Source of the DNA: Chamaelirium japonicum
Taxonomy: Eukaryota; Streptophyta; Magnoliopsida; Liliales; Melanthiaceae
DNA length: 64,000 nt
Assembly (NCBI GenBank): GCA_947650365.1
Contig: CANTAL010000136.1
Location: 434,001 to 498,000 of the forward strand
Reading direction: 5' to 3'
The notes below the pieces were generated by a model, which saw only the letters and a list, made by a program, of their open reading frames with translations, made no database searches and was not told the origin of the DNA. A program made the position numbers and the translations under genes. Each line of letters starts with the position of its first letter. The first letter of the stretch is position 1. Positions 22,711 to 51,300 of the stretch are shown here, in pieces.

Positions 22711-23670
22711 ATTCTAATTCATTCGTACGATCCATTCGAATTCATTCATACGATCCATTCTAATTCATTCATACGATCCATTCTAATTCATTCGCAAGAA
22801 TGTATCCATTCTAATTCATTCGTATGATCCATTCTAATTCATTCGCACAATCTATTCTAATTCATTCGAACGATCCATTCTAATTCATTCGCACGATCCA
22901 TTCTAATTCATTCATACAATCCATTCTAATTCTTTTGCATGAATGTATCCATTCTAATTCCTTCGTACGATCCATTCTAATTCCTTCGTAAGATCCATTC
23001 TAATTCCTTCGTACGATCTATTCTATTTCATTCATATGATCCATTCTAATTCGTTTGTACGATCCATTCTAATTCATTCCCATGAATTTATCTATTCTAA
23101 TTCATACGTACGATCCATTCAGATTCATTCATACGATCCAATCTAATTCATTCATACGATCCATTCTAATTCATTCGCACGAATGTATCCATTCTAATTC
23201 ATTCGTACGATCCATTCGAATTCATTCATACGATCCATTCTAATTCATTCATACGATCCATTCTAATTCATTCGCAAGAATGTATCCATTCTAATTCATT
23301 CGTATGATCCATTCTAATTCATTCGCACAATCTATTCTAATTCATTCGAACGATCCATTCTAATTCATTCGCACGATCCATTCTAATTCATTCATACAAT
23401 CCATTCTAATTCTTTTGCATGAATGTATCCATTCTAATTCCTTCGTACGATCCATTCTAATTCCTTCGTAAGATCCATTCTAATTCCTTCGTACGATCTA
23501 TTCTATTTCATTCGTATGATCCATTCTAATTCGTTTGTACGATCCATTCTAATTCATTCCCATGAATTTATCTATTCTAATTCATACGTACGATCCATTC
23601 AGATTCATTCATACGATCCAATCTAATTCATTCATACGATCCATTCTAATTCATTCGCACGAATGTATCC
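22711..23670 (+). repeat. 480-bp perfect tandem duplication of a satellite HOR segment
   Basis: Bases 22711-23190 and 23191-23670 are aligned at an offset of exactly 480 bp. I found one difference, CATATGATCC versus CGTATGATCC near 23033/23513. Rare private variants such as CGCAAGAATG, TTCGTTTGTACG and CATGAATTTATC are shared by both. The copies must come from a recent duplication, younger than the HOR itself. Confidence 0.9.
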
Positions 23671-26600: not shown

Positions 26601-28186
26601 CGATCCATTCTAATTCATTCGTATGATCCATTCTAATTCATTCACACAATCTATTCTAATTAATTCGTACGATCCATTCTAATTCGTTAGCACGATCCAT
26701 TCTAATTCATTCGTACGATCCATTCTATTTCATTCGTACGATCCATTCTTACTCACCCGTAAGATCCATTCTAATTCATTCGCACGAATGTATCCATTCT
26801 AATTCATTCGTATGATCCATTCTAATTCATTTGCTCGATCTATTCTAATTCATTCATATGATCCTTTCTAATTCATTTGTACGATCCATTCTAATTCATT
26901 CGCACGATCCATTCTAATTCATTCATATGATCCATTCTAATTTATTCATACAATTCATTCTAATTCTTTCGCACGAATGTTTCCATTCTAATTCATTCGT
27001 ACGATCCACCCTAATTCCTTCGTATGATCCATTCTAATTCATTCGAACGAATCTATCAATTCTAATTCATTCGTACGATCCATTCAAATTCATTCATACA
27101 ATCCATTCTAATTCATTCATACGATCCAATCTAATTCATTCGCACGAATGTATCCATTTTAATTCATTCGTACAATCCATTATAATTCATTCGCACAATC
27201 TATTGTAATTCATTCGTACGATCCATTCTAATTTATTTGCACGATCCATTCTAATTCATTTGCACGATCCATTCTAATTCATTCATACAATCCATTCTAA
27301 TTCTTTTGCACAAATATATCCATTCTAATTCATTCGTACGATCCATTATAATTCCTTCGTATGATCCATTATAATTCTATCGTACGATCCATTCTAATTC
27401 CTTTGTACGATCCATTCTATTTCATTCGTATAATCCATTCTAATTCCTTCGTACGATCCATTCTAATTCATTCCCATGAATGTATCCATTCCAATTCATA
27501 CATATGATCCATTCTAACTCATTCATACGATCCAATCTAATTCATTCATAAGATCCATTCTAATTCATTCGCATGAATGTATCCATTCTAATTTATTCGT
27601 ACGATCCATTCTAATTCATTCGCACAATCTATTCTAATTCATTCGCACGATCCATTCTAATTCATTCAAACGATCCATTCTAATTCATTCGTATGATCCA
27701 TTCTAATTCATTCGCACGATCCATTCTAATTCATTCATATGATCCATTCTAATTCATTCACACGAATGTATCCATTCTAATTCATTCGTACGATCTATTC
27801 TAATTCATTCGCACAATCTATTCTAATTCATTCGTATGATACATTCTAATTCATTAGCACGAACCATTCTAATTCATTCGTACGATCCATTCTATTTCAA
27901 TCGTACGATCCATTCTTACTCATTTGTACGATCCATTCTAATTCATTCGCACGAATGTATCGATTCTAATTCATTCGTACGATCTATTCTAATTCATTCA
28001 CACGATCCATTCTAATTCATTCATATGATCCATTCTAATTCATTCGCACAATCTATTCTAATTTATTCGTTCGATCCATTCTAGCTCATTAGCACGATCC
28101 ATTCTAATTCATTCGTACAATCCATTCTATTTCATTCGTACGATCCATTCTAAATCATTCGTACGATCCATTCTAATTCATTCGCA

Positions 28187-30210
28187 CGAATGTATCCATT
28201 CTAATTCATTCGTACGATCCATTCTAATTCATTCGCACGATCTATTCTAATTCATTCATACGATCCATTCTAATTCATTCGTACGATCCATTCTAATTCA
28301 TTCGCACAATCCATTCTAATTCATTCATACGATCCATTCTAATTCATTCATACAATCCATTCTAATTCTTTCGCACGAATGTACCCATTCTAATTCATTC
28401 GTACGACCCACCCAAATTCCTTCGTATGATCCATTCTAATTCATTCGCACACGAATGTATCCATTCTAATTCATTCGTATGATCCATTCGAATTCATTCA
28501 TACGATCTATTCTAATTCATTCATACGATCCATTCTAATTCATTCGCACGAATGTATCCATTCTAATTCATTCGTACAATCCATTTTAATTTATTCGCAC
28601 AATCGATTATAATTCATTCGTATGATCCATTCTAATTCATTCGCACGATCCATTCTAATTCATTTGTACAATCCATTCTAATTCATTCATACAATCCATT
28701 CTAATTCTTTTACACGAATGTATCCATTCTAAGTCATTCGTACGATCCATTCTAATTCCTTCGTACAATCTATTCTAATTCTTTCGTACGATCCATTCTA
28801 ATTTCTTCGTACGATCCATTCTAATTCATTCCCATGAATGTATCCATTCTAATTCATACGTACGATCCATTCTAATTCATTCATACGATCCAATCTAATT
28901 CATTTATACGATCTATTCTAATTCATTCGCACGAATGTATCCATTCTAATTCATTCGTACGATCCATTCTAATTCATTCGCACAATCTATTCTAATTCAT
29001 TCGTACGATCCATTCTAATTCATTTACACGATCCATTCTTATTCATTTGCACGATCCATTCTAATTCATTCATACAATCCATTCTAATTCTTTTGCACGA
29101 ATGTATCCATTCTAATTCATTCGTACGATTCATTCTAATTCCTTCGTACGATCCAGTCTAATTCCTTCATACGATCCATTCTAATTCCTTCATACGATCC
29201 ATTCTATTTTATTCGTCTAATCCATTCTAATTCCTTCATACGATTCATTCTAATTCATTCCCATGAATGTATCCATTCTAATTCATACGTACGATCCATT
29301 CTAATTCATTCATATGATCCAATCTAATTCATTCATACGATCCATTCTAATTCATGCGCACGAATGTATCCATTCTAATTCATTCGTACGATCCATTCTA
29401 ATTCATTCGCACAATCTATTCTAATTAATTCGTACGATCCATTTTAATTCATTAGCATGATCCATTCTAATTCATTCGTACTATCCATTCTATTTCATTC
29501 GTACGATCTATTCTTACTTATTCGTACGATCCATTCTAATTCATTCGCACGAATTTATCCATTCTAATTCATTCGTACGATCCATTCTAATTCATTCGCA
29601 CGATTCATTCTAATTCATTCGTACGATCCATTCTAATTCATTCGTACGATCCATTCTAATTCATTCGCACGATCCATTCTAATTCATTCATACGATCCAT
29701 TCTAATTCATTCATACAATCCATTCTAATTCTTTCGCACGAATGTATCCATTCTAATTCATTCGTACGATCCACCCTAATTCCTTCGTATGATCCATTCT
29801 AATTCATTCACACGAATGTATCTATTCTAATTCATTCGTACGATCCATTCGAATTCATTCATACGATCCATTCTAATTCATTCATACGATCTATTCTAAT
29901 TCATTCGCACGAATATATCTATTCGAATTCATTCGTATGATCCATTCTAATTCATTCGCACAATCTATTCAAATTCATTCATACGATCCATTCTAATTCA
30001 TACGCACGATCCATTCTAATTAATTTGTACGATCCATTCTAATTCATTCATACAATTCATTCTAATTCTTTTGCACGAATGTATCCATTCTAATTCATTC
30101 ATACGATCCATTCTAATTCATTCCCATGAATGTATCTATTCTAATTCATACATACGATCCATTCTAATTCATTCATACGATCCAATCTAATTCATTCATA
30201 CGATCCATTC
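28187..30210 (+). repeat. Example of the ordered HOR blocks
   Basis: Blocks each begin with the 28-bp ATGTA monomer and keep a fixed order. Block A: CAATCTATTC, TTAGCA, CTATTTC, CTTACTC (8 monomers, 189 bp). Block B ends in CTTTCGCA (189 bp). Block C has ACCCTAATTCC (74 bp). Block D has CGAATTC (97 bp). Block E ends in CTTTTGCA (166 bp). Block F has repeated AATTCCTTCGTA and ends in TTCCCA (about 143 bp). Block G starts TGAATGTA with CATACGTA and CCAATC (97 bp). They sum to about 955 bp. From 28187 the order is B-C-D-E-F-G, then E-F-G, then A-B-C-D-E-F-G. Block lengths are counted by eye and vary by single monomers. Confidence 0.78.
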
Positions 30211-30723
30211 TAATTCATTCGCACGAATGTATCCATTCTAATTCATTCGTACGATCCATTCGAATTCATTCATACGATCTATTCCAATTCATTCATACGA
30301 TCCATTCTAATTCATTAGCACGATCCATTCTAATTCATTCGTATGACCAATTCTATTTCATTCGTACGATCCATTCTAATTCATTCGCATAATCCATTCT
30401 AATTCATTCGTACGATCCATTCGAATTCATTCATACGATTTACTTCAATTCATTCATACGATCCCTTCTTACTCATTCGTAAGATCCATTCTAATTCATT
30501 CGCACGAATGTATCCATTCTAATTCATTCGTACGATCCATTCTAATTCATTCGCACGATCCATTCTAATTCATTCGTACGATCCATTTTAATTCATTCGC
30601 ACGATCCATTCTAATTCATTCATACGATCCATTCTAATTCAGTCATACGATCCATTCTAATTCATTCGCACGAATGTATCCATTCTAATTCATTGACACA
30701 ATCTATTCTAATTCTTTCGTACG

Positions 30724-30859
30724 CATGCAAATGAATTAGAATGGATCGTATGAAGGAATTAGAATGGATCATAAGAATGAAATAGAATGGATCGTACGAA
30801 GGAATTAGAATGGATCGTACGAATGAATTAGAATGGATCGTATGAATGAATTAGAATGA
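30724..30859 (-). repeat. Inverted satellite segment 1 (136 bp)
   Basis: Orientation flips just after TTCGTACG (ends 30723) and returns at GAATTAGAATGAATTATAATTCC (30851-30870). It holds about six monomers in reverse. The same 136-bp inverted block with the same breakpoints occurs at 34356, 39646 and 61579, so it is a duplicated landmark and not four independent inversions. Confidence 0.92.
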
Positions 30860-33800
30860 ATTATAATTCCTTCGTACGATCCATTCTAATTCCTTCGTAC
30901 GATCCATTCTATTTCATTCGTATGATCCATTCTAATTCCTTCGTACGATCCATTCAAATTCATTCCCATGAATGTATCCATTCTAATTCATACATACGAT
31001 CCATTCTAATTCATTCATACGATCCAATCAAATTCATTCATAAGATCCATTCTAATTCATTCGCACGAATGTATCCCTTCTAATTCATTCGTACGATCCA
31101 TTCTAATTCATTCGCACAATCTATTCTAATTCATTCGCACGATCCATTCTAATTTATTCGTATGATCCATTCTAATTCATTCGCACGATCCATTCTAATT
31201 CATTCATACGATCCATTGTAATTAATTCATACGATCCATTCTAATTCATTCACACGAATGTATCCATTCTAATTCATTCGTACGATCCATTCTAATTTAT
31301 TCGCACAATCTATTCTAATTCATTCGTACGATCCATTCTAATTCATTAGCATGATCCATTCTAATTCATTCGTACGATCCATTCTATTTCAATCGTACGA
31401 TCCATTCTTACTCATTCGTACGATCCATTCTAATTCATTAGCACGAATGTATCCATTCTAATTCATTCGTACGATCCATTCTAATTCATTCGCACGATCC
31501 ATTCTAATTCATTCGTATGATCCATTCTAATTCATTCGCACGATCCATTCTAATTCATTCATATGATCCATTCTAATTCATTCATACAATTCATTCTAAT
31601 TCTTTCGCACGAATGTTTCCATTCTAATTCATTTGTACGATCCACCCTAATTCCTTCGTATGATCCATTCTAATTCATTCGAACGAATGTATCCATTCTA
31701 ATTCATTCGTACGATCCATTCGAATTCATTCATACGATCCATTCTAATTCATTCATACGATCCATTCTAATTCATTCGCATGAATGTATCCATTCTAATT
31801 CATTCGTACGATCCATTCTAATTCATTCGCACTATCCATTCTAATTCATTTGCATGATCCATTCTAATTCATTCATACAATCCATTCTAATTCTTTTGCA
31901 CAAATGTATCCAATCTAATTCATTCGTACGATCCATTCTAATTCCTTCGTATGATCCATTATAATTCCTTCGTATGATCCATTCTAATTCCTTCGTACGA
32001 TCCATTCTATTTCATTCGTATGATCCATTCTAATTCCTTCGTACAATCCATTCTAATTCATTCCCATGAATGTATCCATTCTAATTCATACGTACGATCC
32101 ATTCTAATTCATTCATACGATCCAACCTAATTCATTCATAAGATCTATTCTAATTCATTCGCACGAATGTATCCATTCTAATTCATTCGTACGATCCATT
32201 CTAATTCATTCTCACAATCTATTCTAATTCTTTCGCACGATCCATTCTAATTCATTCAGGCAATCTATTCTAATTCATTCGTACGATCCATTCTAATTCA
32301 TTCGCACGATCCATTCTAATTCATTCATACGATCCATTCTAATTCATTCATACGATCCATTCTAATTCATTCACACGAATGTATCCATTCTAATTCATTC
32401 GTACGATCCATTCTAATTTATTCGCACAATCTATTCTAATTCATTCGTACGATCCATTCTAATTCATTAGCACGATCCATTTTAATTCATTCGTACGATC
32501 CATTCTATTTCAATCGTACGATCCATTCTTACTCATTCGTACGATCCATTCTAATTTATTTGCGCGAATGTATCCATTCTAATTCATTCGTACGATCCAT
32601 TCTAATTTATTCGCACGATCCATTCTAATTCATTCATACGATCAATTCTAATTCATTCGTACGATCCATTCTAATTCATTCGCACAATCTATTCTAATTT
32701 ATTCGTACGATCCATTCTAATTCATTCGTACGATCCATTCTATTTCATTCGTACGATCCATTCTTACTCATTCGTACGATCCATTCTAATTCATTCGCAC
32801 GAATGTATCCATTGTAATTCATTCGTACGATCCACTCTAATTCATTCGCACGATCCATTCTAATTCATTCATACGATCCATTCTAATTCATTCGTACGAC
32901 CCATTCTAATTCATTCGTATGATCCATTCTTATTCATTCGCACGATCCGTTCTAATTCATTCTATGATCCATTCTAATTCATTAATGCAATCCATTCTAA
33001 TTCTTTCGCACGAATGTATCAATTCTAATTCATTCATACGATCCACTATAATTCCTTCGTATGATCCATTCTAATTCATTCGCACGAATGTATCCATTTT
33101 AATTCATCCGTACGATCCATTCGAATTCATTCATACGATCTATTCTAATTCATTCATACGATCCATTCTAATTCATTCGCACGAATATATCCATTCTAAT
33201 TCATTCGTACGATCTATTCTAATTTATTCGCACAATCAATTCTAATTCATTCGTATGATCCATTCTAATTCATTTGCACGATCCATTCTAATTCATTTGT
33301 ACGATCCATTCTAATTCATTCATACAATCCATTCTAATTCTTTTGCACGAATGTATCCATTCTAATTCATTCGTACGATCCATTCTAATTCCTTCGTACG
33401 ATCCATTCTAATTCCTTCCTACAATCCATTCTAATTTCTTCGTACGATCCATTCTAATTCATTCCCATGAATGTATCCATTCTAATTCATATGTATGATC
33501 CATTCTAATTCATTCATATGATCCAATCTAATTCATTCATACGATCTATTCTAATTCATTCGCACGAATGTATCCATTCTAATTCATTCGTACGATCCAT
33601 TCTAATTCATTCGCACAATCTATTCTAATTCATTCGTACGATCCATTCTAATTCATTTGCATGATCCATTCTAATTCATTTGCACGATCCATTCTAATTC
33701 TTTCATACAATCCGTTATAATTCTTTTGCACGAATGTATCCATCCTAATTCATTCGTACGATCCATTCTAATTCCTTCGTACGATCCATTCTAATTCCTT

Positions 33801-34355
33801 CGTACGATCCATTCTATTTTATTCGTATGATCCATTCTAATTCCTTCGTACGATCCATTCTAATTCATTCCCATGAATGTATCCATTATAATTCATACGT
33901 ACGATCCATTCTAATTCATTCATACGATCCAATCTAATTCATTCATACGATCCATTCTTATTCATTCGCACGAATGTATCCATTCTAATTCATTCGTACG
34001 ATCCATTCGAATTCATTCATATGATCTACTCCAATTCATTCATACGATCCATTCTAATTCATTAGCACGATCCATTCTAATTCATTCGTACGACCAATTC
34101 TATTTCATTCGTACGATCCATTCTTACTCATTCGTACGATCCATTCTAATTCATTCGCACGAATGTATCCATTCTAATTCATTCGTACAATCCATTCTAA
34201 TTCATTCGCACAATCCATTCTAATTCATTCGTACGATCCATTCTAATTCATTCGCACGATCCATTCTAATTCATTCATACGATCCATTCTAATTCATTCG
34301 CACGAATGTATCCATTCTAATTTATTCACACAATCTATTCTAATTCTTTCGTACG
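30860..34355 (+). repeat. Forward satellite array, HOR unit 1 body
   Basis: This is the body of the 3.63-kb unit that begins with the inverted segment at 30724. It aligns with 34492 onward at offsets from 3632 to 3700 bp; the shift reflects three monomers less a 1-base deletion (CCATTTATTTC near 35013). The end of the unit (CCAATTC variants near 34085, then CACACAATC) matches the sequence before the inversions at 30724 and 39646. There is no gene content. Confidence 0.83.
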
Positions 34356-34491
34356 CGTGCAAATGAATTAGAATGGATCGTACGAAGGAATTAGAATGGA
34401 TCATACGAATGAAATAGAATGGATCGTACGAAGGAATTAGAATGGATCGTACGAATGAATTAGAATAGATCATATGAATGAATTAGAATGA
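34356..34491 (-). repeat. Inverted satellite segment 2 (136 bp)
   Basis: This is a counterpart of 30724-30859 with the same length and order of reversed monomers. The junction reads TTCGTACGCGTGCAAATG, where segment 1 has CGCATGCAAATG, a CG to CA difference. It heads the second multi-kb unit. Confidence 0.92.
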
Positions 34492-37400
34492 ATTATAATT
34501 CCTTCGTACGATCCATTCTAATTCCTTCGTACGATCCATTCTATTTCATTCGTATGATCCATTCTAATTCCTTCGTACGATCCATTCTAATTCATTCCCA
34601 TCAATGTATCCATTCTAATTCATACGTACGATCCATTCTAATTCATTCATACGATCCAATCTAATTCATTCATAAGATCCATTCTAATTCATTCGCACGA
34701 ATGTATCCCTTCTAATTCATTCGTACGATCCATTCTAATTCATTCGCACAATCAATTCTAATTCATTCGCACGATCCATTCTAATTCATTCGTACGATCC
34801 ATTCTAATTCATTCGCACGATCCATTCTAATTCATTCATACGATCCATTGTAATTCATTCATACGATCCATTCTAATTCATTCACACGAATGTATCCATT
34901 CTAATTCATTCGTACGATCCATTCTAATTTATTCGCACAATCTATTCTAATTCATTCGTACGATCCATTCTAATTCATTAGCACGATCCATTCTAATTCA
35001 TTCGTACGATCCATTTATTTCAATCGTACGATCCATTCTTACTCATTCGTATGATCCATTCTAATTCATTCGCACGAATGTATCCATTCTAATTCATTCG
35101 TACGATCCATTCTAATTCATTCTCACGATCCATTCTAATTCATTCATACGATCCATTCTAATTCATTCGTACGATCCATTCTAATTCATTCGCACGATCC
35201 ATTCTAATTCATTCATATGATCCATTCTAATTCATTCATACAATTCATTCTAATTCTTTCGTACAAATGTTTCCATTCTAATTCATTCGTACGATCCACC
35301 CTAATTCCTTCGTATGATCCAATCTAATTCATTCGAACGAATGTATCCATTCTAATTCATTCGTACGATCCATTCGAATTCATTCATACGATCCATTCTA
35401 ATTCATTCATACGATCCATTTTAATTCATTCGCACGAATGTATCCATTCTAATTCATTCGTACGATCCATTCTAATTCATTCGCACAATCTATTCTAATT
35501 CATTCATACGATCCATTCTAATTCATTCGCATGATCCATTCTAATTCATTTGCATGATCCATTCTAATTCATTCATACAATCCATTCTAATTCTTTTGCA
35601 CAAATGTATCCATTCTAATTCATTCGTACGATCCATTCTAATTCCTTCGTATGATCCATTATAATTCCTTCGTACGATCCATTCTAATTCCTTCGTACGA
35701 TCCATTCTATTTCATTCGTATGATCCATTCTAATTCCTTCGTACGATCCATCCTAATTCATTCCCATGAATGTATCCATTCTAATTCATACGTACGATCC
35801 ATTCTAATTCATTCATATGATCCAACCTAATTCATTCATAAGATCTATTCTAATTTATTCGCACGAATGTATCCATTCTAATTCATTTGTACGATCCATT
35901 CTAATTCATTCTCATAATCTATTCTAATTCATTCGCACGATCCATTCTAATTCATTCAAGCGATCCATTCTAATTCATTCGTACGATCCATTCTAATTCA
36001 TTCGCACGATCGATTCTAATTCATTCATACGATCCATTCTAATTCATTCATACGATCCATTCTAATTCATTCACACGAATGTATCCATTCTAATTCATTC
36101 GTACGATCCATTCTAATTTATTCACACAATCTATTCTAATTCATTCGTACGATCCATTCTAATTCATTAGCACGATCCATTCTAATTCATTCGTACGATC
36201 CATTCTATTTCAATCGTACGATCCATTCTTACTCATTCGTACGATCCATTCTAATTTATTTGCGCGAATGTATCCATTCTAATTTATTCGTACGATCCAT
36301 TCTAATTCATTCGCACGATCCATTCTAATTCATTCATACGATCCATTCTAATTCATTCGTATGATCCATTCTAATTCATTCGCACAATCTATTCTAATTT
36401 ATTCGTACGATCCATTCTAATTCATTCGTACGATCCATTCTATTTCATTCGTACGATCCATTCTTACTCATTCGTACGATCCATTCTAATTCATTCGCAC
36501 GAATGTATCCATTTTAATTCATTTGTACGAACCACTCTAATTCATTTGCACGATCCATTCTAATTCATTCATACGATCCATTCTAATTCATTCGTACGAT
36601 CCATTCTAATTCATTCGTATGATCCATTCTAATTCATTTGCACGATCCGTTCTAATTCATTCTACGATCCATTCTAATTCATTAATACAATCCATTCTAA
36701 TTCTTTCGCACGAATGTATCAATTCTAATTCATTCGTACGATCCACCCTAATTCCTTCGTATGATCCATTCTAATTCATTCGCACGAATGTATCCATTCT
36801 AATTCATTCGTACGATCCATTCGAATTCATTCATACGATCTATTCTAATTCATTCATACGATCCATTCTAATTCATTCGCACGAATGTATCCATTCTAAT
36901 TCATTCGTACGATCTATTCTAATTTATTCGCACAATCAATTCTAATTCATTCGTATGATCCATTCTAATTCATTTGCACGATCCATTCTAATTCATTTGT
37001 ACGATCCATTCTAATTCATTCATACAATCCATTCTAATTCGTTTGCACGAATGTATCCATTCTAATTGATTCGTACGATCCATTCTAATTCCTTCGTACG
37101 ATCCATTCTAATTCCTTCGTACAATCCATTCTAATTTCTTCGTACGATCCATTCAAATTCATTCCCATCAATGTATCCATTCTAATTCATACGTACGATC
37201 CATTCTAATTCATTCATATGATCTAATCTAATACATTCATACGATCTATTCTAATTCATTCGCACAAATGTATCCATTCTAATTCATTCGTACGATCCAT
37301 TCTAATTCATTCGCACAATCTATTCTAATTTATTCGTACGATCCATTCTAATTCATTTACACGATCCATTCTAATTCATTTGCACGATCCATTCTAATTC

Positions 37401-38792
37401 TTTCATACAATCCATTCTAATTCTTTTGCACGAATGTATCCATTCTAATTCATTCGTACTATCCATTCTAATTCCTTCGTACGATCCATTCTAATTCCTT
37501 CGTACGATCCATTCTATTTTATTCGTATGATCCATTCTAATTCCTTCGTACGATCCATTATAATTCATTCCCAAAATGTATCCATTCTGATTCATACGTA
37601 CGATCCATTCTAATTCATTCATACGATCCAATCTAATTCATTCATACGATCCATTCTAATTCATTCGCACGAATGTATCCATTCTAATTCATTTGTACGA
37701 TCCATTCCAATTCATTCGCACAATCTATTCTAATTTATTCATACGATCCATTCAAATTCATTAGCATGATCCATTCTAATTCATTCGTACGATCCATTCT
37801 ATTTCATTCGTACGATCCATTCTTACTTATTCGTACGATCCATTCTAATTCATTCGCATGAATTTATCATTTCTAATTCATTCATACGATCCATTCTAAT
37901 TCATTCATACGATCCATTCTAATTCATTCGTACGATCCATTCTAATTCATTCATACGATCCATTCTAATTCATTCATACAATCCATTCTAATTCTTTCGC
38001 ACGAATGTATCCATTCTAATTCATTCGTACGATCCACCCTAATTTCTTTGTATGATCCATTCTAATTCATTCGCACGAATGTATCTATTCTAATTCATTC
38101 GTACGATCCATTCGAATTCATTCATACGATCCATTCTAATTCATTCATACGATCCATTCTAATTCATTCGCCCGAATGTATCCATTCTAATTCATTCGTA
38201 TGATCCATTCTAATTCATTCGTACGATCCATTCTAATTCATTCGCACGATCCATTCTAATTAATTTGTACGATCCATTCTAATTCATTCATACAATTCAT
38301 TCTAATTCTTTTGCACGAATGTATCTATTCTAATTCATTCATACGATCCATTCTAATTCCTTCGTACGATCCATTCTAATTTCTTCGTACGACCCATTCT
38401 AATTGATTCATATGATCCAATCTAATTCATTCATACGATCCATTCTAATTCATTTGCACGAATGTATCCTTTCTAATTCATTCGTACGATCCATTCTAAT
38501 TCATTCGCACAATCTATTCTAATTCATTCGTCCGATCCATTCTAATTCATTAGTACGATCCATTCTAATTCATTCGTATGACCCATTCTATTTCATTCGT
38601 ACGATCCATTCTTACTCATTCGCACGATCCATTCTAATTCATTCGTACGATCCATTCTAATTCATTCGCACGATCCATTCTAGTTCATTCATACGATCCA
38701 TTCTAATTCATTAATACGATCCATTCTAATTCATTCGCACGAATGTATCCATTCTAATTCATTCACATAATCTATTCAAATTCTTTCGTACG
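34492..38792 (+). repeat. Forward satellite array, HOR unit 2 body
   Basis: With its inverted head this makes a unit of about 4.44 kb (34356-38792). It extends about 0.8 kb beyond the end of unit 1. Its right part (about 37.7-38.8 kb) matches the right part of unit 3 (about 42.9-44.0 kb), including TCACANAATCTATTCAAATT just before the next orientation switch. There is no gene content. Confidence 0.82.
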
Positions 38793-38912
38793 CGTGCAAA
38801 TGAATTAGAATGGATCGTGCAAATGAATTAGAATGGATCGTACGAATGAATTAGAATAGATTGTATGAATGAATAAGAATGGATCGTACGAATGAATTAG
38901 AATGGATACATT
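38793..38912 (-). repeat. Inverted satellite segment 3 (about 120 bp)
   Basis: The left junction (TTCGTACGCGTGCAAATG) is like those of segments 2 and 4, but the inside differs: it has GATTGTATGAATG and ends in a 29-bp hairpin arm. It resembles the start of the large inverted domain at 44016, not the 136-bp blocks. It looks like a shortened relative of that domain's left edge. Confidence 0.88.
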
Positions 38913-38944
38913 CGTGTATCCATTCTAATTCATTCGTACGATCC
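38881..38944. repeat. Perfect 29-bp inverted repeat with 6-nt loop
   Basis: Bases 38881-38909 and 38916-38944 are exact reverse complements, separated by ATTCGT. The arms are one monomer length plus 6 bp. The structure lies exactly where the array turns from reverse back to forward, as expected of a fold-back event during replication or repair. The pairing was checked base by base. Confidence 0.92.
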
Positions 38945-39645
38945 AATCTAATTCCTTCGTACGATCCATTCTAATTCATTCGTATGATCCACCCTAATTC
39001 CTTCGTATGATCCATTCTAATTCATTCGTACGATCCATTCTAATTCATTAGCACGATCCATTCTAATTCATTCGTACGATCCATTCTATTTCATTCGTAC
39101 GATCCATTCTTACTCATTTGTACGATCCATTCTAATTCATTCGCACGAATGTATCCATTCTAATTCATTCGTACGATCCATTCTAATTCATTCGCACAAT
39201 CCATTCTAATTCTTTCGTACGATCCATTCTAATTCATTCGCACAATCCATTCTAATTCATTCGTACGATCCATTCGAATTCATTCATACGATCTACTCCA
39301 ATTCATTCATACGATCCATTCTAATTCATTAGCACGATCCATTCTAATTCATTCGTACGACCAATTCTATTACATTCGTACGATCCATTCTTACTCATTC
39401 GTATGATCCATTCTAATTCATTCGCACGAATGTATCCATTCTAATTCATTCGTATGATCAATTCTAATTCATTCACACGATCCATTCTAATTCATTCGTA
39501 CGATCCATTCTAATTCATTCGCACGATCCATTCTAATTCATTCATACGATCCATTCTAATTCATTCATACGATCCATTCTAATTCATTCACACGAATGTA
39601 TCTATTCTAATTCATTCACACAATCTATTCTAATTCTTTCGTACG
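38913..39645 (+). repeat. Forward satellite spacer between HOR units 2 and 3
   Basis: This 0.73-kb stretch follows the hairpin. It is a compressed mosaic: an ACCCTAATTCC monomer near 38990, an A-type block, then the CGAATTC and CTACTCC variants and the segment that precedes the 136-bp inversions. Its right half matches the ends of the arrays before 30724 and 34356. Confidence 0.8.
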
Positions 39646-39781
39646 CGTGCAAATGAATTAGAATAGATCGTACGAAGGAATTAGAATGGATCATACGAAT
39701 GAAATAGAATGGATCGTACGAAGTAATTAGAATGGATCGTACGAATGAATTAGAATGGATCGTATGAATGAATTAGAATGA
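39646..39781 (-). repeat. Inverted satellite segment 4 (136 bp)
   Basis: This is the same block as 30724-30859 and 34356-34491, with an AAGTAATTAG variant near 39721. It heads the third multi-kb unit. Confidence 0.92.
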
Positions 39782-42700
39782 ATTATAATTCCTTCGTACG
39801 ATCCATTCTAATTCCTTCATACGATCCATTCTATTTCATTCGTATGTTCCATTCTAATTCCTTTGTACGATCCATTCTAATTCATTCCCATGAATGTATC
39901 CATTCTAATTCATACGTACGATCCATTCTAATTCATTCATACGATCCAATCTAATTCATTCATAAGATCCATTCTAATTCATTCGCACGAATGTATCCCT
40001 TCTAATTCATTCGTCCAATCCATTCTAATTTATTCGCACAATCTATTCTAATTCATTCGCACGATCCATTCTAATTCATTCGTACGATCCATTCTAATTC
40101 ATTCGCACGATCCATTCTAATTCATTCATACGATCCATTGTAATTCATTCATACGATCCATTCTAATTCATTCACACGAATGTATCCATTCAAATTCATT
40201 CGTACGATCCATTCTAATTTATTTGCACAATCTATTCTAATTTATTCGTACGATCCATTCTAATTCATTAGCACGATCCATTCTAATTCATTCGTACGAT
40301 CCATTCTATTTCAATCGTACGATCCATTCTTACTCATTCGTACGATCCATTCTAATTCATTCGCACGAATGTATCCATTCTAATTCATTCGTACGATCCA
40401 TTCTAATTCATTCGTACGATCCATTCTAATTCATTCATACGATCCATTCTAATTCATTCGCACAATCCATTCTAATTCATTCATATAATCCATTCTAATT
40501 CATTCATACAATTCATTCTAATTCTTTCGCACGAATGTTTCCATTCTAATTCATCCGTACGATCCACCCTAATTCCTTCGTATGATCCATTCTAATTCAT
40601 TCGAACGAATGTATCCATTCTAATTCATACGTACGATCCATTCGAATTCATTCATACGATCCATTCTAATTCATTCGCACGAATGTATCCATTCTAATTC
40701 ATTCGTACGATCCATTCTAATTCATTCGCACAATCTATTCTAATTCATTCGTACGATCCATTCTAATTCATTCGCACTATCCATTCTAATTTATTTGCAT
40801 GATCCATTCTAATTCATTCATACAATCCATTCTAATTCTTTTGTACAAATGTATCCATTCTAATTCATTCGTACGATCCATTCTAATTCCTTCGTATGAT
40901 CCATTATAATTCCTTCGTACAATCCATTCTAATTCCTTCGTACGATCCATTCTATCTCATTCGTATGATCCATTCTAATTCCTTCGTACGATCCATTCTA
41001 ATTCATTCCCATGAATGTATCCATTCTAATTCATACGTACTATCCATTCTAATTCATTCATACGATCCAATCTAATTCATTCATAAGATCTATTCTAATT
41101 CATTCGCACGAATGTATCCATTCTAATTCATTCGTACGATCCATTCTAATTCATTCTCATAATCTATTCTAATTCATTCGCACGATCCATTCTAATTCAT
41201 TCAAGCGATCCATTCTAATTCATTCGTACGATCCATTCTAATTCATTCGCGCGATCCATTCTAATTCATTCATACGATCCATTCTAATTCATTCATACGA
41301 TCCATTCTAATTCATTCACACGAATGTATCCATTCTAATTCATTCGTACGATCCATTCTAATTTATTCGCACAATCTATTCTAATTCATTCGTACGATCC
41401 ATTCTAATTCATTAGCACGATCCATTCTAATTCATTCGTACGATCCATTCTATTTCAATCGTACGATCCATTCTTACTCATTTATACGATCCATTCTAAT
41501 TTATTTGCGCGAATATATCCATTTTAATTCATTCGTATGATCCATTTTAATTCATTCCCACGATCCATTCTAATTCATTCAAACGATCCATTCTAATTCA
41601 TTCGTACGATCCATTCTAATTCATTCGCACAATCTATTCTAATTTATTCGTACGATCCATTCTAATTCATTCGTACGATCCATTCTATTTTATTCGTACG
41701 ATCCATTCTTACTCATTCGTACGATCCAGTCTAATTCATTCGCACGAATGTATCCATTGTAATTCATTCGTACGATCCACTCTAATTCATTCGCACGATC
41801 CATTCTAATTCATTCATACGATCCATTCTAATTCATTCGTACGATCCATTCTAATTCATTCGTATGATCCATTCTAATTCATTCGCACGATCCATTCTAA
41901 TTCATTCATACGATCCATTCTAATTCATTAATACAATCCATTCTAATTCTTTCGCACGAATGTATCAAGTCTAATTCATTCGTATGATCCACCTTAATTC
42001 CTTCGTATCATCCATTCTAATTCATTCGCACGAATGTATCCATTCTAATTCATTCGTACGATCCATTCGAATTCATTCATACGATCTATTCTAATTCATT
42101 CATACGATCCATTCTAATTCATTCGCACGAATGTATCCATTCTAATTCATTCGTACGATCTATTCTAATTTATTCGCACAATCAATTCTAATTCATTCGT
42201 ATGATCCATTCTAATTCATTTGCACGATCCATTCTAATTCTTTTGTACGATCCATTCTAATTCATTCATACAATCCATTCTAATTCTTTTGCACGAATGT
42301 ATCCATTCTAATTCATTCGTACGATCCATTCTAATTCCTTCGTATGATCCATTCTAATTCCTTCGTACAATCCATTCTAATTTCTTCGTACGATCCATTC
42401 TAATTCATTCCCATGAATGTATCCATTCTAATTAATACGTACGATCCATTCTAATTCATTCATATGATCAAATCTAATTCATTCATACGATCTATTCTAA
42501 TTCATTCGCACGAATGTATCCATTCTAATTCATTCGTACGATCCATTCTAATTCATTCGCACAATCTATTCTAATTCATTCGTACGATCCATTCTAATTC
42601 ATTTGCACGATCCATTCTAATTCATTTGCACGATCCATTCTAATTCTTTCATACAATCCATTCTAATTCTTTTGCACGAATGTATCCATTCTAATTCATT

Positions 42701-44015
42701 CGTACGATCCAGTCTAATTCCTTCGTACGATCCATTCTAATTCCTTCGTACGATCCATTCTATTTTATTCGTATGATCCATTCTAATTCCTTCGTACGAT
42801 CCATTATAATTCATTCCCAAAATGTATCCATTCTAATTCATACGTACGATTCATTCTAATTCATTCATACGATCCAATCTAATTCATTCATACGATCCAT
42901 TCTAATTCATTCGCACGAATGTATCCATTCTAATTCATTCGTATGATCCATTCTAATTCATTCGCACAATCTATTCTAATTTATTCGTACAATCCATTCT
43001 AATTCATTAGCACGATCCATTCTAATTCATTCGCACGATCCATTCTAATTCATTTGTACGATCCATTCTAATCCATTCGTACAATCCATTCTAATTCATT
43101 CATACGATCCATTCTAATTCATTCATACAATCCATTCTAATTCTTTCGCACGAATATATCCATTCTAATTCATTCGTACGATCCACTGTAATTTCTTCGT
43201 ATGATCCATTCTAATTCATTCGCACGAATGTATCTATTGTAATTCATTCGTACGATCCATTCGAATTCATTCATACGATCCATTCTAATTCATTCATACG
43301 ATCCATTCTAATTCATTCGCCCGAATGTATCCATTCTAATACATTCGTATGATCGATTCTAATTCATTCGCACAATCTATTCTAATTCATTCGTACGATC
43401 CATTCTAATTCATTCGCACGATTCATTCTAATTAATTTGTACGATCCATTCTAATTCATTCATACAATTCACTCTAATTCTTTTGCACGAATGTATCTAT
43501 TCTAATTCATTCTTACGATCCATTCTAATTCCTTCGTACGATCCATTCTAATTCCTTCGTACGATCCATTCTAATTCATTTAAATGAATGTATCCATTCT
43601 AATTCATACGTACGATCCATTCTAATTGATTCATATGATCCAATCTAATTAATTCATACGATCCATTCTAATTCATTTGCACGAATGTATCCTTTCTAAT
43701 TCATTCGTACGATCCATTCTAATTCATTCTCACAATCTATTCTAATTCATTCGTACGATCCATTCTAATTCATTAGCACGATCCATTCTAATTCATTCGT
43801 ACGACCCATTCTATTTCATTCGTACGATCCATTCTTACTCATTCGCACGATCCATTCTAATTCATTCGTACGATCCATTCTAATTCATTCGCACGATCCA
43901 TTCTAGTTCATTCATACGATCCATTCTAATTCATTCATATGATCCATTCTAATTCATTCGCACGAATGTATCCATTCTAATTCATTCACACAATCTATTC
44001 AAATTATTTCGTACT
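39782..44015 (+). repeat. Forward satellite array, HOR unit 3 body
   Basis: With its head this is a unit of about 4.37 kb, parallel to unit 2 (4.44 kb). Shared private variants include CATTCAAGCGATCC near 41205 and 35953, TTTGCGCGAAT near 41505 and 36257, and CATTCCCAAAATG near 42820 and 37568. The unit ends at TTTCGTACTCGTGCAAATG, where the large inverted domain starts. Confidence 0.83.
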
Positions 44016-47000
44016 CGTGCAAATGAATTAGAATGGATCGTGCGAATGAATTAGAATGGTTCGTACGAATGAATTAGAATAGATTGTGCGAATGAATAAA
44101 AATGGATCGTACGAATGAATTAGAATGGATACATTCGTGCAAATGAATTAGAATGGATCGTATGAATGAATTAGAATGGATCGTATGAATGAATTCGAAT
44201 GGATTGTACGAATGAATTAGATTGGATACATTCGTGCGAATTAATTAGAATGGATCATATGAAGGAATTAGGGTGGATCGTACGAATGAATTAGAATGGA
44301 TACATTCGTGCGAAAGAATTAGAATGGATTGTATGAATGAATTAGAATGGATCGTCGAATGAATTACAATGGATCGTACGAATAAATTAGAATGGATACA
44401 TTCGTGCAAAAGAATTAGAATGAATTATATGAATGAATTAGAATAGATCGTGCAAATGAATTAGAATGGATCATGCGAATGAGGATACATTTGTGCGAAT
44501 GAATTAGAATGGATCGTACAAATGAGTAATAATGGATCGTACGAATGAAATAGAATGGATCGTACGAATGAATTAGAATGGATCATGTGAATGAATTAGA
44601 TTGGATCGTGCGAATGAATTAGATTTAATGGATCATACGAATGGATAAGAATAGATCAAGCGAATGAATAAGAATGAATTAGAATGGATTGCATGAATGA
44701 ATTAGAATGGATCGTATGAATGAATTAGAATGGATCGTACGAATGAATTAGAATTGATCGTGCGAATGAATTAGAATGGATCATACGAATGAATTAGAAT
44801 GGATCGTGCTAATGAATTAGAATGGATCGTACGAATGAATTAGAATAGATTGTACGAATGAATTAGAATGGATCGCATGAATGGATTAGAATGGATACAT
44901 TCGTGCGAATGAATTAGAATGGATCGTAAGAATGAATTAGATTGGATCGTATGAATGAATTAGAATGGATCGTACGTATAAATTAGAATGGATACATTCA
45001 AGGGAATGAATTAGAATGGATCGTACGAATGAAATAGAATGGATTGTACGAAGGAATTAGAATGGATCGTACGAAGGAATAAGAATGGATCGTACGAATG
45101 AATTAGAATGGATACATTCGTCCGAAAGAATTAGAATGGATTGTATGAATGAATTAGAATAGATCGTATGAATGAATTAGAATGGATCGTGCGAATGAAT
45201 TAGATTGGATCGTACGAATGAATTAGAATGGATCGTATGAATGAATTAGAATGGATCATTCGAATGAATTAGAATGGATCGTACGAATGAATTAGAATGG
45301 ATCGTGCGAATGAATTAGAATGGTTCGTACGAATGAATTAGAATAGATTGTGCGAATGAATAAGAATGGATCGTACGAATGAATTAGAATGGATACATTC
45401 GTGCGAATGAATTAGAATGAATCGTATGAATGAATTAGAATGGATCGTATGAATGAATTCGAATGGATTGAACGAATGAATTAGATTGGATACATTCGTG
45501 CGAATTAATTAGAATGGATCATATGAAGGAATTAGGGTGGATCGTATGAATGAATTAGAATGGATACATTCGTGCGAAAGAATTAGAATGGATTGTATGA
45601 ATGAATTAGAATAGATCGTCGAATGAATTACAATGGATCGTACGAATAAATTAGAATGGATACATTCGTGCAAAAGAATTAGAATGAATTATATGAATGA
45701 ATTAGAATAGATCGTGCAAATGAATTAGAATGGATCATGCGAATGAGGATACATTTGTGCGAATGAATTAGAATGGATCGTACAAATGAGTAAGAATGGA
45801 TCGTACGAATGAAATAGAATGGATTGTACGAATGAATTAGAATGGATCATGTGAATGAATTAGATTGGATCGTGCGAATGAATTAGATTTAATGGATCAT
45901 ACGAATGGATAAGAATAGATCAAGCGAATGAATAAGAATGAAATAGAATGGATTGCATGAATGAATTAGAATGGATCATATGAATGAATTAGAATGGATC
46001 GTACGAATGAATTAGAATTGATCGTGCGAATGAATTAGAATGGATCGTACGAATGAATTAGAATGGATCGTACGAATGAATTAGAATAGATTGTATGAAT
46101 GAATTAGAATGGATCGTATGAATGGATTAGAATGGATACATTCGTGCGAATGAATTAGAATGGATCGTAAGAATGAATTAGATTGGATCGTATGAATGAA
46201 TTAGAATGGATCGTACGTATAAATTAGAATGGATACATTCAATGGAATGAATTAGAATAGCTCGTACGAATGAAATAGAATGGATCGTACGAAGGAATTA
46301 GAATGGATCGTACGAAGGAATCAGAATGGATCGTACGAATGAATTAGAATGGATGCATTCGTCCGAAAGAATTAGAATGGATTGTATGAATGAATTAGAA
46401 TAGATCGTATGAATGAATTAGAATGGATCGTGCGAATGAATTAGATTGGATCGTACGAATGACTTAGAATGGATCGTATGAATGAATTAGAATGGATCGT
46501 TCGAATGAATTAGAATGGATCGTACGAATGAATTAGAATGGATACATTCGTGCGAATGAATTAGAATGGATCATACGAATGAGTAAGAATGGATCATATG
46601 AATGAAATAGAATGGATCGTACGAATGAATTAGAATAGATTATGCGAATGAATTATAATGGATCGTACGAATGAATTCAAATGGATATATTCGTGCGAAT
46701 GAATTAAAATGGATCGTATGAATGAATTCGATTGGATCATATAAATGAATTTGAATGGATCGTATATATGAATTAGAATGGATACATTCATGGGAATTAA
46801 TTAGAATGGATCGTACGAAGGAATTAGAATGGATCATACGAATGAAATAGAATGGATCATACGAAGGAGTTAGAATGGATCGTAAGAAGGAATTAGAATG
46901 GATCGTACGAAGGAATTAGAATGGATCGTACGAATGAATTAGAATGGATACATTCATGCAAAAGAATTAGAATGGATTGAATGAATAAATTAGAATGGAT

Positions 47001-48333
47001 CGTACGAATGAATTAGAATGGATCATACGAATGAATTAGAATGGATCGTACGAATGAATTAGAATGGATACATTCGTGCGAAAGAATTAGAATGGATCGT
47101 ACGAATTAGAATCAGAATGGATCGTACGAATGAATTAGAATGGATGGTACGAATGAACTAGAATGGATCGTACGAATGAATTAGAATGGATTATACAAAC
47201 GAATTAGAATGGATCATGCAAATGAATTAGAATGGATCGTACGAATGAATTAGAATGGATACATTCGTGCGAATGAATTAGAATGGATCGTACGAATGAG
47301 TAAGAATGGATCGTACAAATGAAATAGAATGGATCGTATGAATGAATTATAATGGATCGTGCGAATGAATTAGAATGGATCGTACGAATGAGTAAGAATG
47401 GATCGTACGAATGAAATAGAATGGATCGTATGAATGAATTAGAATAGATCGTGCTAATGAATTAGAATGGATCGTACAAATGAATTAGAATTGATTGTGC
47501 GAATGTTTTAGAATGGATCGTACGAATAAATTAGAATGGATTATATGAATGAATTAGAATGGATCGTGCGACTGAATTAGAATAGATCGTATGAATGAAT
47601 TAGAATGGATCGTATGAATGAATTAGAATGGATCGTGCGAATGAATTAGAATGGATCGTACGAATGAATTAGATTGGATACATACGAAAGAATGGATCGT
47701 ACGAATGAATTAGAATGAATCGTACGAAGGAATTAGAATGGATACATTCATGGGAATGAATTAGAATGGATCGTACAAAGGAATTAGAATGGATCATACG
47801 AATGTAATGGAATGGATCGTACGAAGGAATTAGAATGGATCGTACGAAGGAATTAGAATGGATCGTACGAATGAATTAGAATGGATCGTACGAATGAATT
47901 TGAATGGATACATTCGTGCAAAAGAATTAGGATGGATTGTATGAATGAATTAGAATGGATCGTGCGAATGAATTAGAATGCATCGTACGAATGAATTAGA
48001 ATAGATTATGCGAATGAATTAGAATGGATTGTACGAATGAATTAGAATAGATACATTTGGGCGAATGAATGATAATGGATCGTACGAATGAATTAGAATG
48101 GATACATTCGTGCGAATGAATTAGAATGTATCGTACAAATGAGTAAGAATCGATCGTACGAATGAAATAGAATGGATAGTACGAATGAATTAGAATGGAT
48201 CGTGCTAATGAATTAGAATGGATCGTACGAATGAATTAGAATAGATTGTGCGAATAAATTAGAATGGATCATACGAATCAATTAGAATGGATCGTATGAA
48301 TGAATTAGAATGGATCGTATGAATCGTACAAAT
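44016..48333 (-). repeat. Large inverted satellite domain (4.3 kb)
   Basis: All monomers read GAATGAATTAGAATGGATCG on the plus strand, the reverse of their surroundings. The left switch is the same type as at 38793. The right switch near 48325-48334 is untidy (GAATCGTACAAATCGTAAGATCC), consistent with end joining. Reversed HOR landmarks are present, such as AATTAGGGTGG (reverse of the ACCCTAATT monomer) near 44270 and 45533. No gene is present. Confidence 0.94.
44030..46560 (-). repeat. Tandem 1.24-1.26 kb duplication inside the inverted domain
   Basis: Two consecutive copies meet near 45300. GATCGTCGAATG is at 44351 and 45615 (offset 1264), and TCCGAAAGAATT at 45121 and 46362 (offset 1241). 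The offset difference is one 23-bp monomer. Shared oddities include the truncated phrase GCGAATGAGGATACATTTG near 44480 and 45740, and AGATTTAATGGATC near 44622 and 45885. Confidence 0.86.
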
Positions 48334-51300
48334 CGTAAGATCCATTCTAATTCATTCATACGATCCATTCTAATTCATTCGCACGAATGTATCCATTCTA
48401 ATTCATTCGTACGATCCATTCTAATTCATTCGCACAATCTATTCTAATCCATTCGTATGATCCATTCTAATTCATTCGCACCATCCATTCTAATTCATTT
48501 GTACAATCTATTCTAATTCATTCATACAATCCATTCTAATTCTTTTGCACGAATGTATCCATTCTAATTCATTCGTACGATCCATTCTAATTCCTTAGTA
48601 CGATCCATTCTAATTACTTCGTACGATCCATTCTAATTCATTCCCATGAATGTATCTATTCTAATTCAAACGTACGATCCATTCTAATTCGTTCATACGA
48701 TCCAATCTAATTCATTCATACGATCCATTCTAATTCATTCGCACGAATGTATCCATTCTAATTCATTCATACGATCCATTCTAATTCATTCGCACAATCT
48801 ATTCTAAATCATTCGTACGATCCATTATAATTCATTAGCATGATCCATTCTAATTCATTCGTACGATCCATTCTATTTCATTCGTACGATCCATTCTAAT
48901 TCCTTCGTACGATCCATTCTAATTCATTCCCATGAATGTATCCATTCTAATTCATACATACGATCCATTCTAATTCATTTATACGATCCAATCTAATTCA
49001 TTCATACGATCCATTCTAATTCATTCGCACGAATGTATCCATTCTAATTCATACATACGATCCATTCTAATTCATTCGCACAATCTATTCTAATTCATTC
49101 GTACGATCCATTCTAATTCATTCGTATAATCCATTCTAATTCATTAAAATTCGAATTCATTCATACGATCCATTCTAATTCATTCGCACGATCCATTCTA
49201 ATTCATTCGCACGATCCAATCTAATTCCTTCGTACATTCTAATTCCTTCGTACGATCCATTCTATTTCATTCGTATGATCCATTCTAATTCATTCGTACG
49301 ATCCATTCTAACTCATTCCCATCAATGTATCCATTCTAATTCATACATACGATCCATTCTAATTCATTTATACGATCAAATATAATTCATTCATACAATC
49401 CATTCTAATTCATTCGCACGAATGTATCCATTCTAATTCATTCGTACGGTCAATTCTAATTCATTCGCACAATCTATTCTAATTCATTCATACGATCCAT
49501 TCTAATTCATTAGCACGATCCATTTTAATTCATTCGTACAATCCATTCTAATTCATTCAAATTCGAATTCATTCATACAATCCATTCTAATTCATTCGTA
49601 CGATCCATTCTAATTCATTCGCACGATCCATTCTAATTCATTCGTACGATCCATTCTAATTCATTCGCACGATCCATTCTAATTCATTCATACGATCCAT
49701 TCTAATTCATTCATACAATCTATTCTAATTCTTTCGCACGAATGTATCCATTCTAATTGATTCGTACGATCCACCCTAATTCCTTCGTATAATCTATTCT
49801 AATTCATTCGCACGAATGTATCCATTCTAATTCATTCGTACGATCCATTCGAATTCATTCATATGATCAATTCTAATTCATTCGCACGATCCATTCTAAT
49901 TCATTCATACGATCCATTCTAATTCATTCGTACGATCCATTCTAATTCATTCGCACGATCCATTCGAATTCATTCATACGATCCATTCTAATTCATTCAT
50001 ACGATCCATTCTAATTCATTCGCACGAATGTATCCATTCTAATTCATTCATACGATCCATTCTATTTCATTCGCACAATTTATTCTAATTCATTCGTACG
50101 ATCCATTCTAATTCATTCGCACGATCCATTCTAATTCATTTGCGCGATCCATTCTAATTCATACATACAATCTATTCTAATTCTTTTGCACGAATGTATC
50201 CATTCTAATTCATTCGTACTATCCATTCTAATTCTTTCATACGATCCATTCTAATTCCTTCATACGATCCATTCTAATTCCTTCGTACGATCTATTCTAT
50301 TTCATTCGTTTGATCCATTCTAAATCCTTCATACGATCAATTCTAATTCATTCCCATGAATGTATCCATTCTAATTCATACGTACGATCCATTCTAATTC
50401 ATTCATATGATCCAATCTGTTTCATTCATACGATCCATTCTAATTCATTCGCATAAATGTATCCATTCTAATTCATTCGTATGATCCATTTTAATTCATT
50501 CGCACAATCTATTCTAATTCATTCATATGATCCATTCTAATTCATTAGCACGATCCATTCTATTTCATTCGAACGATCCATTCTAATTCATTCGCACGAA
50601 TGTATCCATTCTAATTCATTCGTACGATCCATTCTAATTCATTCGCACGATCCGTTCTAATTCATTCAAACGATCCAATCTAATTCATTAATATGATCCA
50701 TTCTAATTCATTCGCACGAATGTATCCATTCTAATTCATTCGTACGATCCATTCTAATTCATTCGCACAATCTATTCTAATTCATTCATGCGATCCATTC
50801 TAATTCATTAGCACGATCCATTCTAATTCAATCGTACGATCCATTCTATTTCATTCGTACGATCCATTCTTACTCATTCGTACGATCTATTCTAATTCAT
50901 TCGCACGAATGTATCCATTCTATTCTAATTCATTCGTATGATCCATTCTAATTCATTCGCACGATCCATTCTAATTCATTCATACGATATATTCTAATTC
51001 ATTCGTATGATCCACTCCAATTCATTCGCACGATCCATTCTAATTCATTCATACGATCCATTCTAATTCATTCATACAATCCATTCTAATTCATTCATAC
51101 GATCCACCCTAATTCCTTCGTATGATCCATTCTAATTCATTCGCTCGAATGTATCCATTCTAATTCATTCATACGATCCATTCGAATTCATTTATACGAT
51201 CCATTCTAATTCATTCATTCGATCCATTCTAATTCAATCGCACGAATGTATTCATTCGCACAATCTATTCTAATTTATTCATACGATCCATTCTAATTCA

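What the first reader, a model, noticed from the sequence alone, without database searches (positions are those of the whole stretch)
30724..44016. Inversion-headed multi-kb units: inverted segments propagated as part of the repeat
The same 136-bp inverted block with identical breakpoints heads units starting at 30724, 34356, 39646 and 61579. Units 2 and 3 also end alike, at switches at 38793 and 44016. So an inversion happened once and was amplified as part of a larger repeat of 3.6-4.4 kb. HORs that carry an internal strand switch are rarely described.
Basis: partly seen in the sequence, partly recalled or inferred. Interest (0 to 1): 0.7.

Follow-up and report, generated by a model that had tools for sequence, protein, structure and literature searches.

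The report
Copied strand switches in centromere satellite
In a plant's centromere repeat DNA, short stretches that run backwards appear to have been made once and then copied, together with thousands of neighbouring bases, to places on several chromosomes, so they can serve as heritable markers of how the repeats spread.

Summary
The window is a 61-kb array of a 23/28-bp satellite, almost certainly the Chio1/Chio2 holocentromere satellite of Chionographis japonica. The 136-bp inverted block lies at 30724, 34356, 39646 and 61579 with the same ends. The copy at 61579 belongs to the second copy of a 30.8-kb tandem duplication (140 mismatches in 30,454 aligned bases); two more lie just outside the window.

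That junction occurs at 152 places genome-wide (reversed-pattern control 0). A sister block with the same left end has its right end exactly 97 bases on at 34 of 38 places, on 12 contigs; the 4 exceptions are this locus's 136-bp form. The same left junction also starts a 3.4-4.3 kb inverted arm: 23 of 26 such sites have the short block upstream on the same strand (18 of them at 4.5-5.1 kb), and 18 of 26 have a third switch 6.4-9.4 kb downstream.

So the switches belong to a cassette of at least 14 kb, dispersed over several chromosomes. Right ends were remodelled: not everything is one inversion, and one switch is not shared between this locus and the other two read. How it moves is inferred. 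Tribolium inversion sites are a close precedent.

The parts
2719..64000 (+). 23/28-bp satellite array (Chio1/Chio2 type), mainly plus, with 16 strand switches in the window (single-hit calls and a short interruption near 53.46 kb not counted)
   Evidence: Tandem Repeats Finder; strand maps; monomer spacing peaks 23 and 28
30724..30859 (-). 136-bp inverted block, first copy, heads unit U1
34356..34491 (-). 136-bp inverted block, second copy, heads U2; 93-bp perfect hairpin arms with its right flank
39646..39781 (-). 136-bp inverted block, third copy, heads U3
61579..61714 (-). 136-bp inverted block, first block of the second copy of the 30.8-kb duplication
30724..34355 (+). unit U1 (3,632 bp)
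   Evidence: U1-U2 96.7% over 3,630 aligned
34356..38792 (+). unit U2 (4,437 bp), ends at a long-type left junction
38793..38919 (-). short inverted stretch with the same left junction but a different right end
39646..44015 (+). unit U3 (4,370 bp), ends at the long-type left junction
   Evidence: U2-U3 97.3%
44016..48330 (-). long inverted arm of the cassette (4.3 kb here, 3.4-3.5 kb on C1 and C59); its right end J2 is not shared with C1 and C59
48331..53045 (+). plus arm of the cassette, ends at switch J3 (53033-53060)
   Evidence: J3 pattern
53046..54010 (-). second inverted arm of the cassette, ends at switch J5, a mirror-image junction here
57351..57425 (-). another short inverted stretch, repeated in copy 2 of the duplication
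27059..57717 (+). copy 1 of the 30.8-kb tandem duplication (matched part)
57867..64000 (+). start of copy 2 (continues on the contig to about window position 102325, split by a retroelement)
1..2718 (-). end of an LTR retroelement beside the array (gag-like frame 43-651 on the minus strand; LTR pair 94.7% alike)

Best explanation
The strand switches are old rearrangement junctions inside a centromeric satellite. The main one (the left junction) was made once and has since been copied as a passenger of multi-kilobase duplications. Shown from sequence: a cassette of at least 14 kb, ordered [short inverted block] - about 5 kb plus - [second switch with the same left junction, 3.4-4.3 kb minus arm] - 4.3-4.9 kb plus - [switch J3, 0.9-1.0 kb minus arm, switch J5] - plus, recurs on several chromosomes. 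In this contig the block-headed part exists as three local units, a 30.8-kb stretch was duplicated in tandem, and an LTR retroelement entered the second copy. Right ends of inverted pieces were remodelled on the way. Inferred: junctions formed by joining differently phased, oppositely oriented pieces of the array (replication template switching or break repair with little homology); local growth by unequal exchange or break-induced replication; dispersal between chromosomes by ectopic recombination, conversion or reintegrated circles.
For: Left junction at 152 places, reversed control 0. Short-block junction at 38 places; at 34 of 38 the ~105-bp right end is exactly 97 bases on (33 with at most 1 mismatch, one with 2), and the 4 without it are this contig's 136-bp form. 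Long-type junction at 26 places: 23 of 26 have the short block upstream on the same strand within 12 kb, 18 of these at 4.5-5.1 kb (recount), and none has it in another order or strand within 12 kb; 18 of 26 have a listed J3 6.4-9.4 kb downstream; 16 of 26 have both. Of 66 J3 places with at most 1 mismatch, 41 have a left junction upstream on the same strand within 15 kb, 1 downstream, 0 on the opposite strand, using 100 of the 152 left-junction places. Three loci read through agree in order: window, C1 114.73-114.75 Mb, C59. Junction identity over 80 bases between these three: block-type left junction 0.96-0.99, long-type 0.94-0.99, J3 0.95-0.99, J5 0.91-0.99. Nested ages: window against C1 or C59 94.0-96.3% by segment, units 96.2-97.3%, tandem duplicate 140 mismatches in 30,454, retroelement LTRs 2 mismatches and 6 gap positions in 1,023.
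Against: J2, the right end of the long arm, is shared by C1 and C59 (0.95) but not by the window (0.78-0.80; unlike switches score 0.70-0.85). The long arm between C1 and window aligns at only 94.0% with 1,650 gap columns, little above the random background; homology there rests on 400-bp pieces at 90-97% and their order (background). Left flanks agree less well than right flanks: 300 bases left of the U2 block differ by 37-40 edits from the other units' blocks, against 13-20 in 600 on the right, and block-type and long-type left flanks agree only for roughly the nearest 75-150 bases before an interruption. The mechanism of formation is not fixed: arms at the 136-bp blocks' right ends are no closer to each other than to 50-108 of 400 random windows; perfect 93-base copies exist elsewhere. 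No clean empty site was seen. Cassette copies are mostly dispersed, so 'higher-order repeat' fits only the C148 locus. By subtraction up to 88 of the 152 left junctions belong to neither searched type (152-38-26; not checked place by place, and the patterns are not strictly nested). 7 of the 20 loci fetched (L021-L025, L029, L039) did not show the simple block pattern and were left out of the alignment. Some contigs may be alternative haplotypes, which would inflate counts. The 30.8-kb duplication could be a haplotype mis-join, since no reads were available.
Confidence: 0.83

Rival explanations
1. Recurrent independent inversions at a hairpin-prone hotspot produce the same breakpoints again and again.
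For: The block with its right flank folds into a very stable hairpin (-118 kcal/mol, z -28.9), and the satellite switches strand often (PMC12722358 passage). Left flanks of different blocks differ more than right flanks.
Against: Both ends are at a fixed offset at 34 of 38 places; different switches keep fixed order and strand; block and right-flank distances agree. Independent events would not keep kilobase order.
Confidence: 0.07
2. The architecture is an assembly artefact: collapsed or mis-joined satellite copies or haplotypes.
For: Satellite arrays assemble poorly; the assembly is larger than the measured genome size (PMC10264360: 1,526 Mb assembled, 1C 1,368 Mb); the two 30.8-kb copies differ by only 0.46%, as two haplotypes might; C147 and C1 118.3 Mb share spacings and variants.
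Against: Three loci that differ by 2-6% share the order of switches; copies at this divergence are not one sequence placed twice. Only the tandem duplication and some of the counts are exposed to this risk.
Confidence: 0.08
3. The switches are kept by selection because mirror-image DNA helps centromere identity, as has been proposed for dyad symmetries.
For: Chio arrays coincide with CENH3 and their monomers carry dyad symmetries (PMC10264360 section 8); very stable hairpins here; conserved inversion sites in Tribolium (PMC13081366 section 7).
Against: The sister genus Chamaelirium has consistently oriented, CENH3-interacting arrays (PMC12722358 passage); 2.7-30.7 kb of this array has no switch; the block is not more conserved than its right flank (4-6 edits in 136 against 13-20 in 600 between units); right ends vary.
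Confidence: 0.1

Closest known systems
Chio1/Chio2 centromeric satellite of Chionographis japonica (PMC10264360; PMC12722358)
   Same: 23- and 28-bp monomers, mixture of forward and reverse arrays, a higher-order cluster (CL73), motif TTCGTACGA, similar assembly size (1,526 Mb in 3,786 contigs in the paper; 1,519 Mb in 3,253 contigs here)
   Different: In the sections and passages I read there is no description of recurring switch junctions or of a dispersed cassette
[quoted passage not shown]
   Same: Specific orientation-switch junctions copied with high identity across a genome; a 'cassette' with defined inversion point and borders; hairpin potential
   Different: Animal, ~110-bp-based satellites, thousands of copies, roughly symmetrical arms; here tens of copies, several unlike switches in fixed order, and no mirror symmetry at the left junction beyond background
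Human alpha-satellite higher-order repeats
   Same: Nested amplification of multi-kb units in a centromeric satellite (recalled)
   Different: Few inversions within HOR units and orientation typically maintained (PMC9859433 passage)

Membership tests
Chio1/Chio2 satellite | 23-bp and 28-bp monomers | tested here: met
   spacing peaks 23 and 28; TRF period 23
Chio1/Chio2 satellite | 9-bp TTCGTACGA within the monomer (PMC12722358) | tested here: met
   614 occurrences on the plus strand of the window
Chio1/Chio2 satellite | forward- and reverse-oriented arrays mixed | tested here: met
   strand maps
Chio1/Chio2 satellite | CENH3 binding | not testable with these tools
   no ChIP data; reported in PMC10264360
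Chio1/Chio2 satellite | identity to the published monomer letters | not tested
   the letters are in a figure and a supplement that I could not see
Higher-order repeat | multi-monomer units repeated head to tail with higher identity than monomers | tested here: inconclusive
   met for U1-U3 and the 30.8-kb pair, but units are unequal and cassettes elsewhere are mostly dispersed
Conserved satellite inversion site (Tribolium-like) | identical switch junction at many genomic places | tested here: met
Conserved satellite inversion site (Tribolium-like) | arms form a macro-dyad (mirror symmetry) around the switch | tested here: not met
   left-junction mirror scores are within background (ranks 184-356 of 400); only J5 is exceptional in the window (0 of 400) and on C1 (1 of 400), not on C59 (97 of 400)

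The most novel reading that the evidence does not exclude
The orientation-mosaic cassette is itself the unit that spreads between centromere units on different chromosomes, so its switch junctions trace how the Chionographis holocentromere was seeded and grew; its hairpins may promote its own copying.
Probability: 0.12. Interest if true: 0.75.

Novelty: new variant of a known kind. Interest (0 to 1): 0.5.

Why it matters
Satellite copies are usually too alike to trace. Base-exact strand switches are rare, unambiguous markers, so here much of the order of events (junction, split of this locus from the others, local units, 30.8-kb duplication, retroelement) can be read, and exchange of centromere DNA between chromosomes of a holocentric plant becomes testable. 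It also gives a plant parallel to the Tribolium inversion cassettes, in a lineage whose sister genus keeps one orientation.

Tried and rejected
Fold-back copy of the adjacent sequence as the origin of the block: attractive because U2 has a 93-base perfect stem, but other array segments match as well or better (switches with an arm under 70 bases dropped), so not claimed. The long arm at 44016 as mirror of its left neighbour: not supported. A strict short HOR period: k-mer distances give no single period. Empty-site search: no clean result. Whole-contig self-BLAST timed out and was replaced by exact k-mer diagonals. A plant-family control (PF02365) was asked once, met a busy machine and was not repeated. 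A phrase search for 23-bp satellites listed 3 papers, none on this satellite by title and abstract. A human review and a Lathyrus paper were seen in passages only.
Full report
WHAT THE WINDOW IS. The window is C148:434001-498000 of a 1.519-Gb assembly in 3,253 contigs. From 2719 to the end it is a 23-bp satellite array with spacing peaks at 23 and 28 bp and 614 copies of TTCGTACGA. Chionographis japonica has a CENH3-associated 23/28-bp satellite, Chio1/Chio2, in mixed orientation, with a higher-order cluster, in a primary assembly of 1,526 Mb in 3,786 contigs scaffolded to 12 chromosomes (PMC10264360: outline, sections 8, 14 and 29, and passages). The shared 9-mer and 'frequently alternating orientation' are in PMC12722358 (12 of 36 passages). 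The organism's name is my inference; the published monomer letters were not available and the contig counts are not identical.

THE OBSERVATION. Strand mapping shows 16 switches in the window, leaving aside single-hit calls and a short interruption near 53.46 kb. The 136-bp inverted blocks at 30724, 34356, 39646 and 61579 share both ends; two more lie at 65211 and 70482 in the flank. The switches at 38793 and 44016 use the same left junction. U1, U2 and U3 are homologous units (96.2-97.3%) against a background of mean 91.3%, maximum 93.5% (27 of 40 random draws kept after dropping close pairs).

THE LARGER DUPLICATION. Positions 27059-57717 recur at 57867-102325, with 140 mismatches in 30,454 aligned bases. 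Copy 2 is split by a retroelement of about 13.8 kb with a 5-bp target duplication TGATC (read by eye from the printed edges) and LTRs with 2 mismatches and 6 gap positions in 1,023 aligned bases. A frame inside it carries reverse transcriptase, RNase H and integrase domains; a second frame matched nothing. The block at 61579 is thus a copy of that at 30724 (0 edits in 136). Without reads, a mis-join of two haplotypes cannot be excluded for this step.

ONE LEFT JUNCTION, SEVERAL RIGHT ENDS. The left junction occurs at 152 places, 80 plus and 72 minus, control 0. Thirteen of the 20 loci fetched (on C1, C7, C59, C73, C106, C147, C330; 15 junctions) share it, but with an earlier right end (~105-bp form); the other seven (L021-L025, L029, L039) did not show the simple block pattern in the strand map and were left out. 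Pattern searches give 38 block-type junctions. The ~105-bp right end has 155 places with at most 2 mismatches, 33 with at most 1. At 34 of the 38 junctions a right end lies at offset exactly 97: the 33, and one 2-mismatch place that I added because it sits beside a listed junction. The remaining 4 are this contig's 136-bp form, whose right end has 6 exact copies, all here (7 further places with 2 mismatches elsewhere). At 38793 and 44016 the same left junction leads to other right ends. By subtraction, up to 88 of the 152 junctions are of neither searched type.

A DISPERSED CASSETTE. Reading on from the long-type junction, the window, C1 and C59 show the same order: minus 3.4-4.3 kb, plus 4.3-4.9 kb, minus 0.9-1.0 kb, plus. 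Segment identities are 96.2-97.9% between C1 and C59 and 94.0-96.3% between either and the window. The lowest, the long arm of C1 against the window (94.0%, 1,650 gap columns), is little above the random background; 400-bp pieces of it match C1 at 90-97% in order, and the window's arm carries a ~1.26-kb internal repeat. Over 80 bases around each switch the three loci agree at 0.94-0.99 for both left junctions, 0.95-0.99 for J3 and 0.91-0.99 for J5; J2, the end of the long arm, is shared by C1 and C59 (0.95) but not by the window (0.78-0.80, within the 0.70-0.85 of unlike switches). Genome-wide, 23 of 26 long-type junctions have the short block upstream on the same strand within 12 kb, 18 of them at 4.5-5.1 kb, and none has it in another order; 18 of 26 have a listed J3 6.4-9.4 kb downstream; 16 of 26 have both. 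From the other side, of 66 J3 places with at most 1 mismatch (330 with at most 2), 41 have a left junction upstream on the same strand within 15 kb, 1 downstream, 0 on the other strand (only 100 of the 152 left junctions were listed, so 41 is a lower bound). C59's J3 was not among the 66 and counts as a miss, though its sequence is there.

RESULTS AGAINST. Left flanks agree less than right flanks: 300 bases left of the U2 block differ by 37-40 edits from those of the other units, and block-type and long-type left flanks agree only for about the nearest 75-150 bases before an interruption. So the junction may also have moved in shorter pieces (conversion), not only in whole units.

HOW IT WORKS. 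Shown: shared junctions inside multi-kb copies, fixed order, nested divergence (window against other loci, then units, then tandem copies, then retroelement). Inferred: formation by joining oppositely oriented array pieces; growth by unequal exchange or break-induced replication; dispersal by ectopic exchange, conversion or circles (the last two are discussed for this species in PMC10264360 section 14). Tested and not supported: that the block is a fold-back copy of its neighbour in particular, or that the left junction is a mirror point. The hairpin potential is strong, but the differently ended stretch at 38793 also folds to -95.7 kcal/mol, so strong hairpins are to be expected where this satellite switches strand.

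WHAT IS KNOWN. Tribolium madens has conserved inversion sites (2,044 INV_1a at 98.9%, 6,428 INV_2 at 98.2%) and a cassette with defined borders (PMC13081366: outline, section 7, passages). Human alpha satellite is said to have few inversions within HOR units (PMC9859433 passage). My eight paper searches listed no paper that by title or abstract treats recurring switch junctions in Chionographis; the library holds only open-licence papers, and the supplements were not seen. Hence: a new variant of a known kind, of moderate interest.

Noticed in passing
G000:C7 29.29-29.50 Mb and 30.35-30.56 Mb: Four left-junction sites repeat with nearly the same spacing about 1.06 Mb apart, suggesting a duplicated segment of about 200 kb.
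   Followed up: no
G000:C5 80.25-80.37 Mb and 85.34-85.44 Mb: The same junction variants occur in opposite orientation about 5 Mb apart, suggesting a large inverted duplication of centromeric DNA.
   Followed up: no
G000:C147 and C1 118.3 Mb: Junction spacing and private variants agree (13,073 and 13,078 bases to the same J3 variant); C147 may be an alternative haplotype of that region.
   Followed up: no
window 1-2718 and flank (window coordinates 74776-88547): Two LTR retroelements, 74-82% alike by stretch, in one array: one older (LTRs 94.7% alike) and one very young (2 mismatches in 1,023); the window's gag frame runs on the minus strand.
   Followed up: partly
window 2218-2652: G+C-rich tandem repeat of GCGAGCTCC-type units inside the retroelement end beside the satellite.
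   Followed up: no
L021-L025 (C131, C52): Arrays in which strand switches often come every few hundred bases, far denser than in the window.
   Followed up: no
window 53991-54031 and the homologous C1 junction: Switch J5 is an exceptional mirror junction (0 of 400 and 1 of 400 random windows score as well), unlike the other switches tested; the C59 homologue is not (97 of 400).
   Followed up: partly
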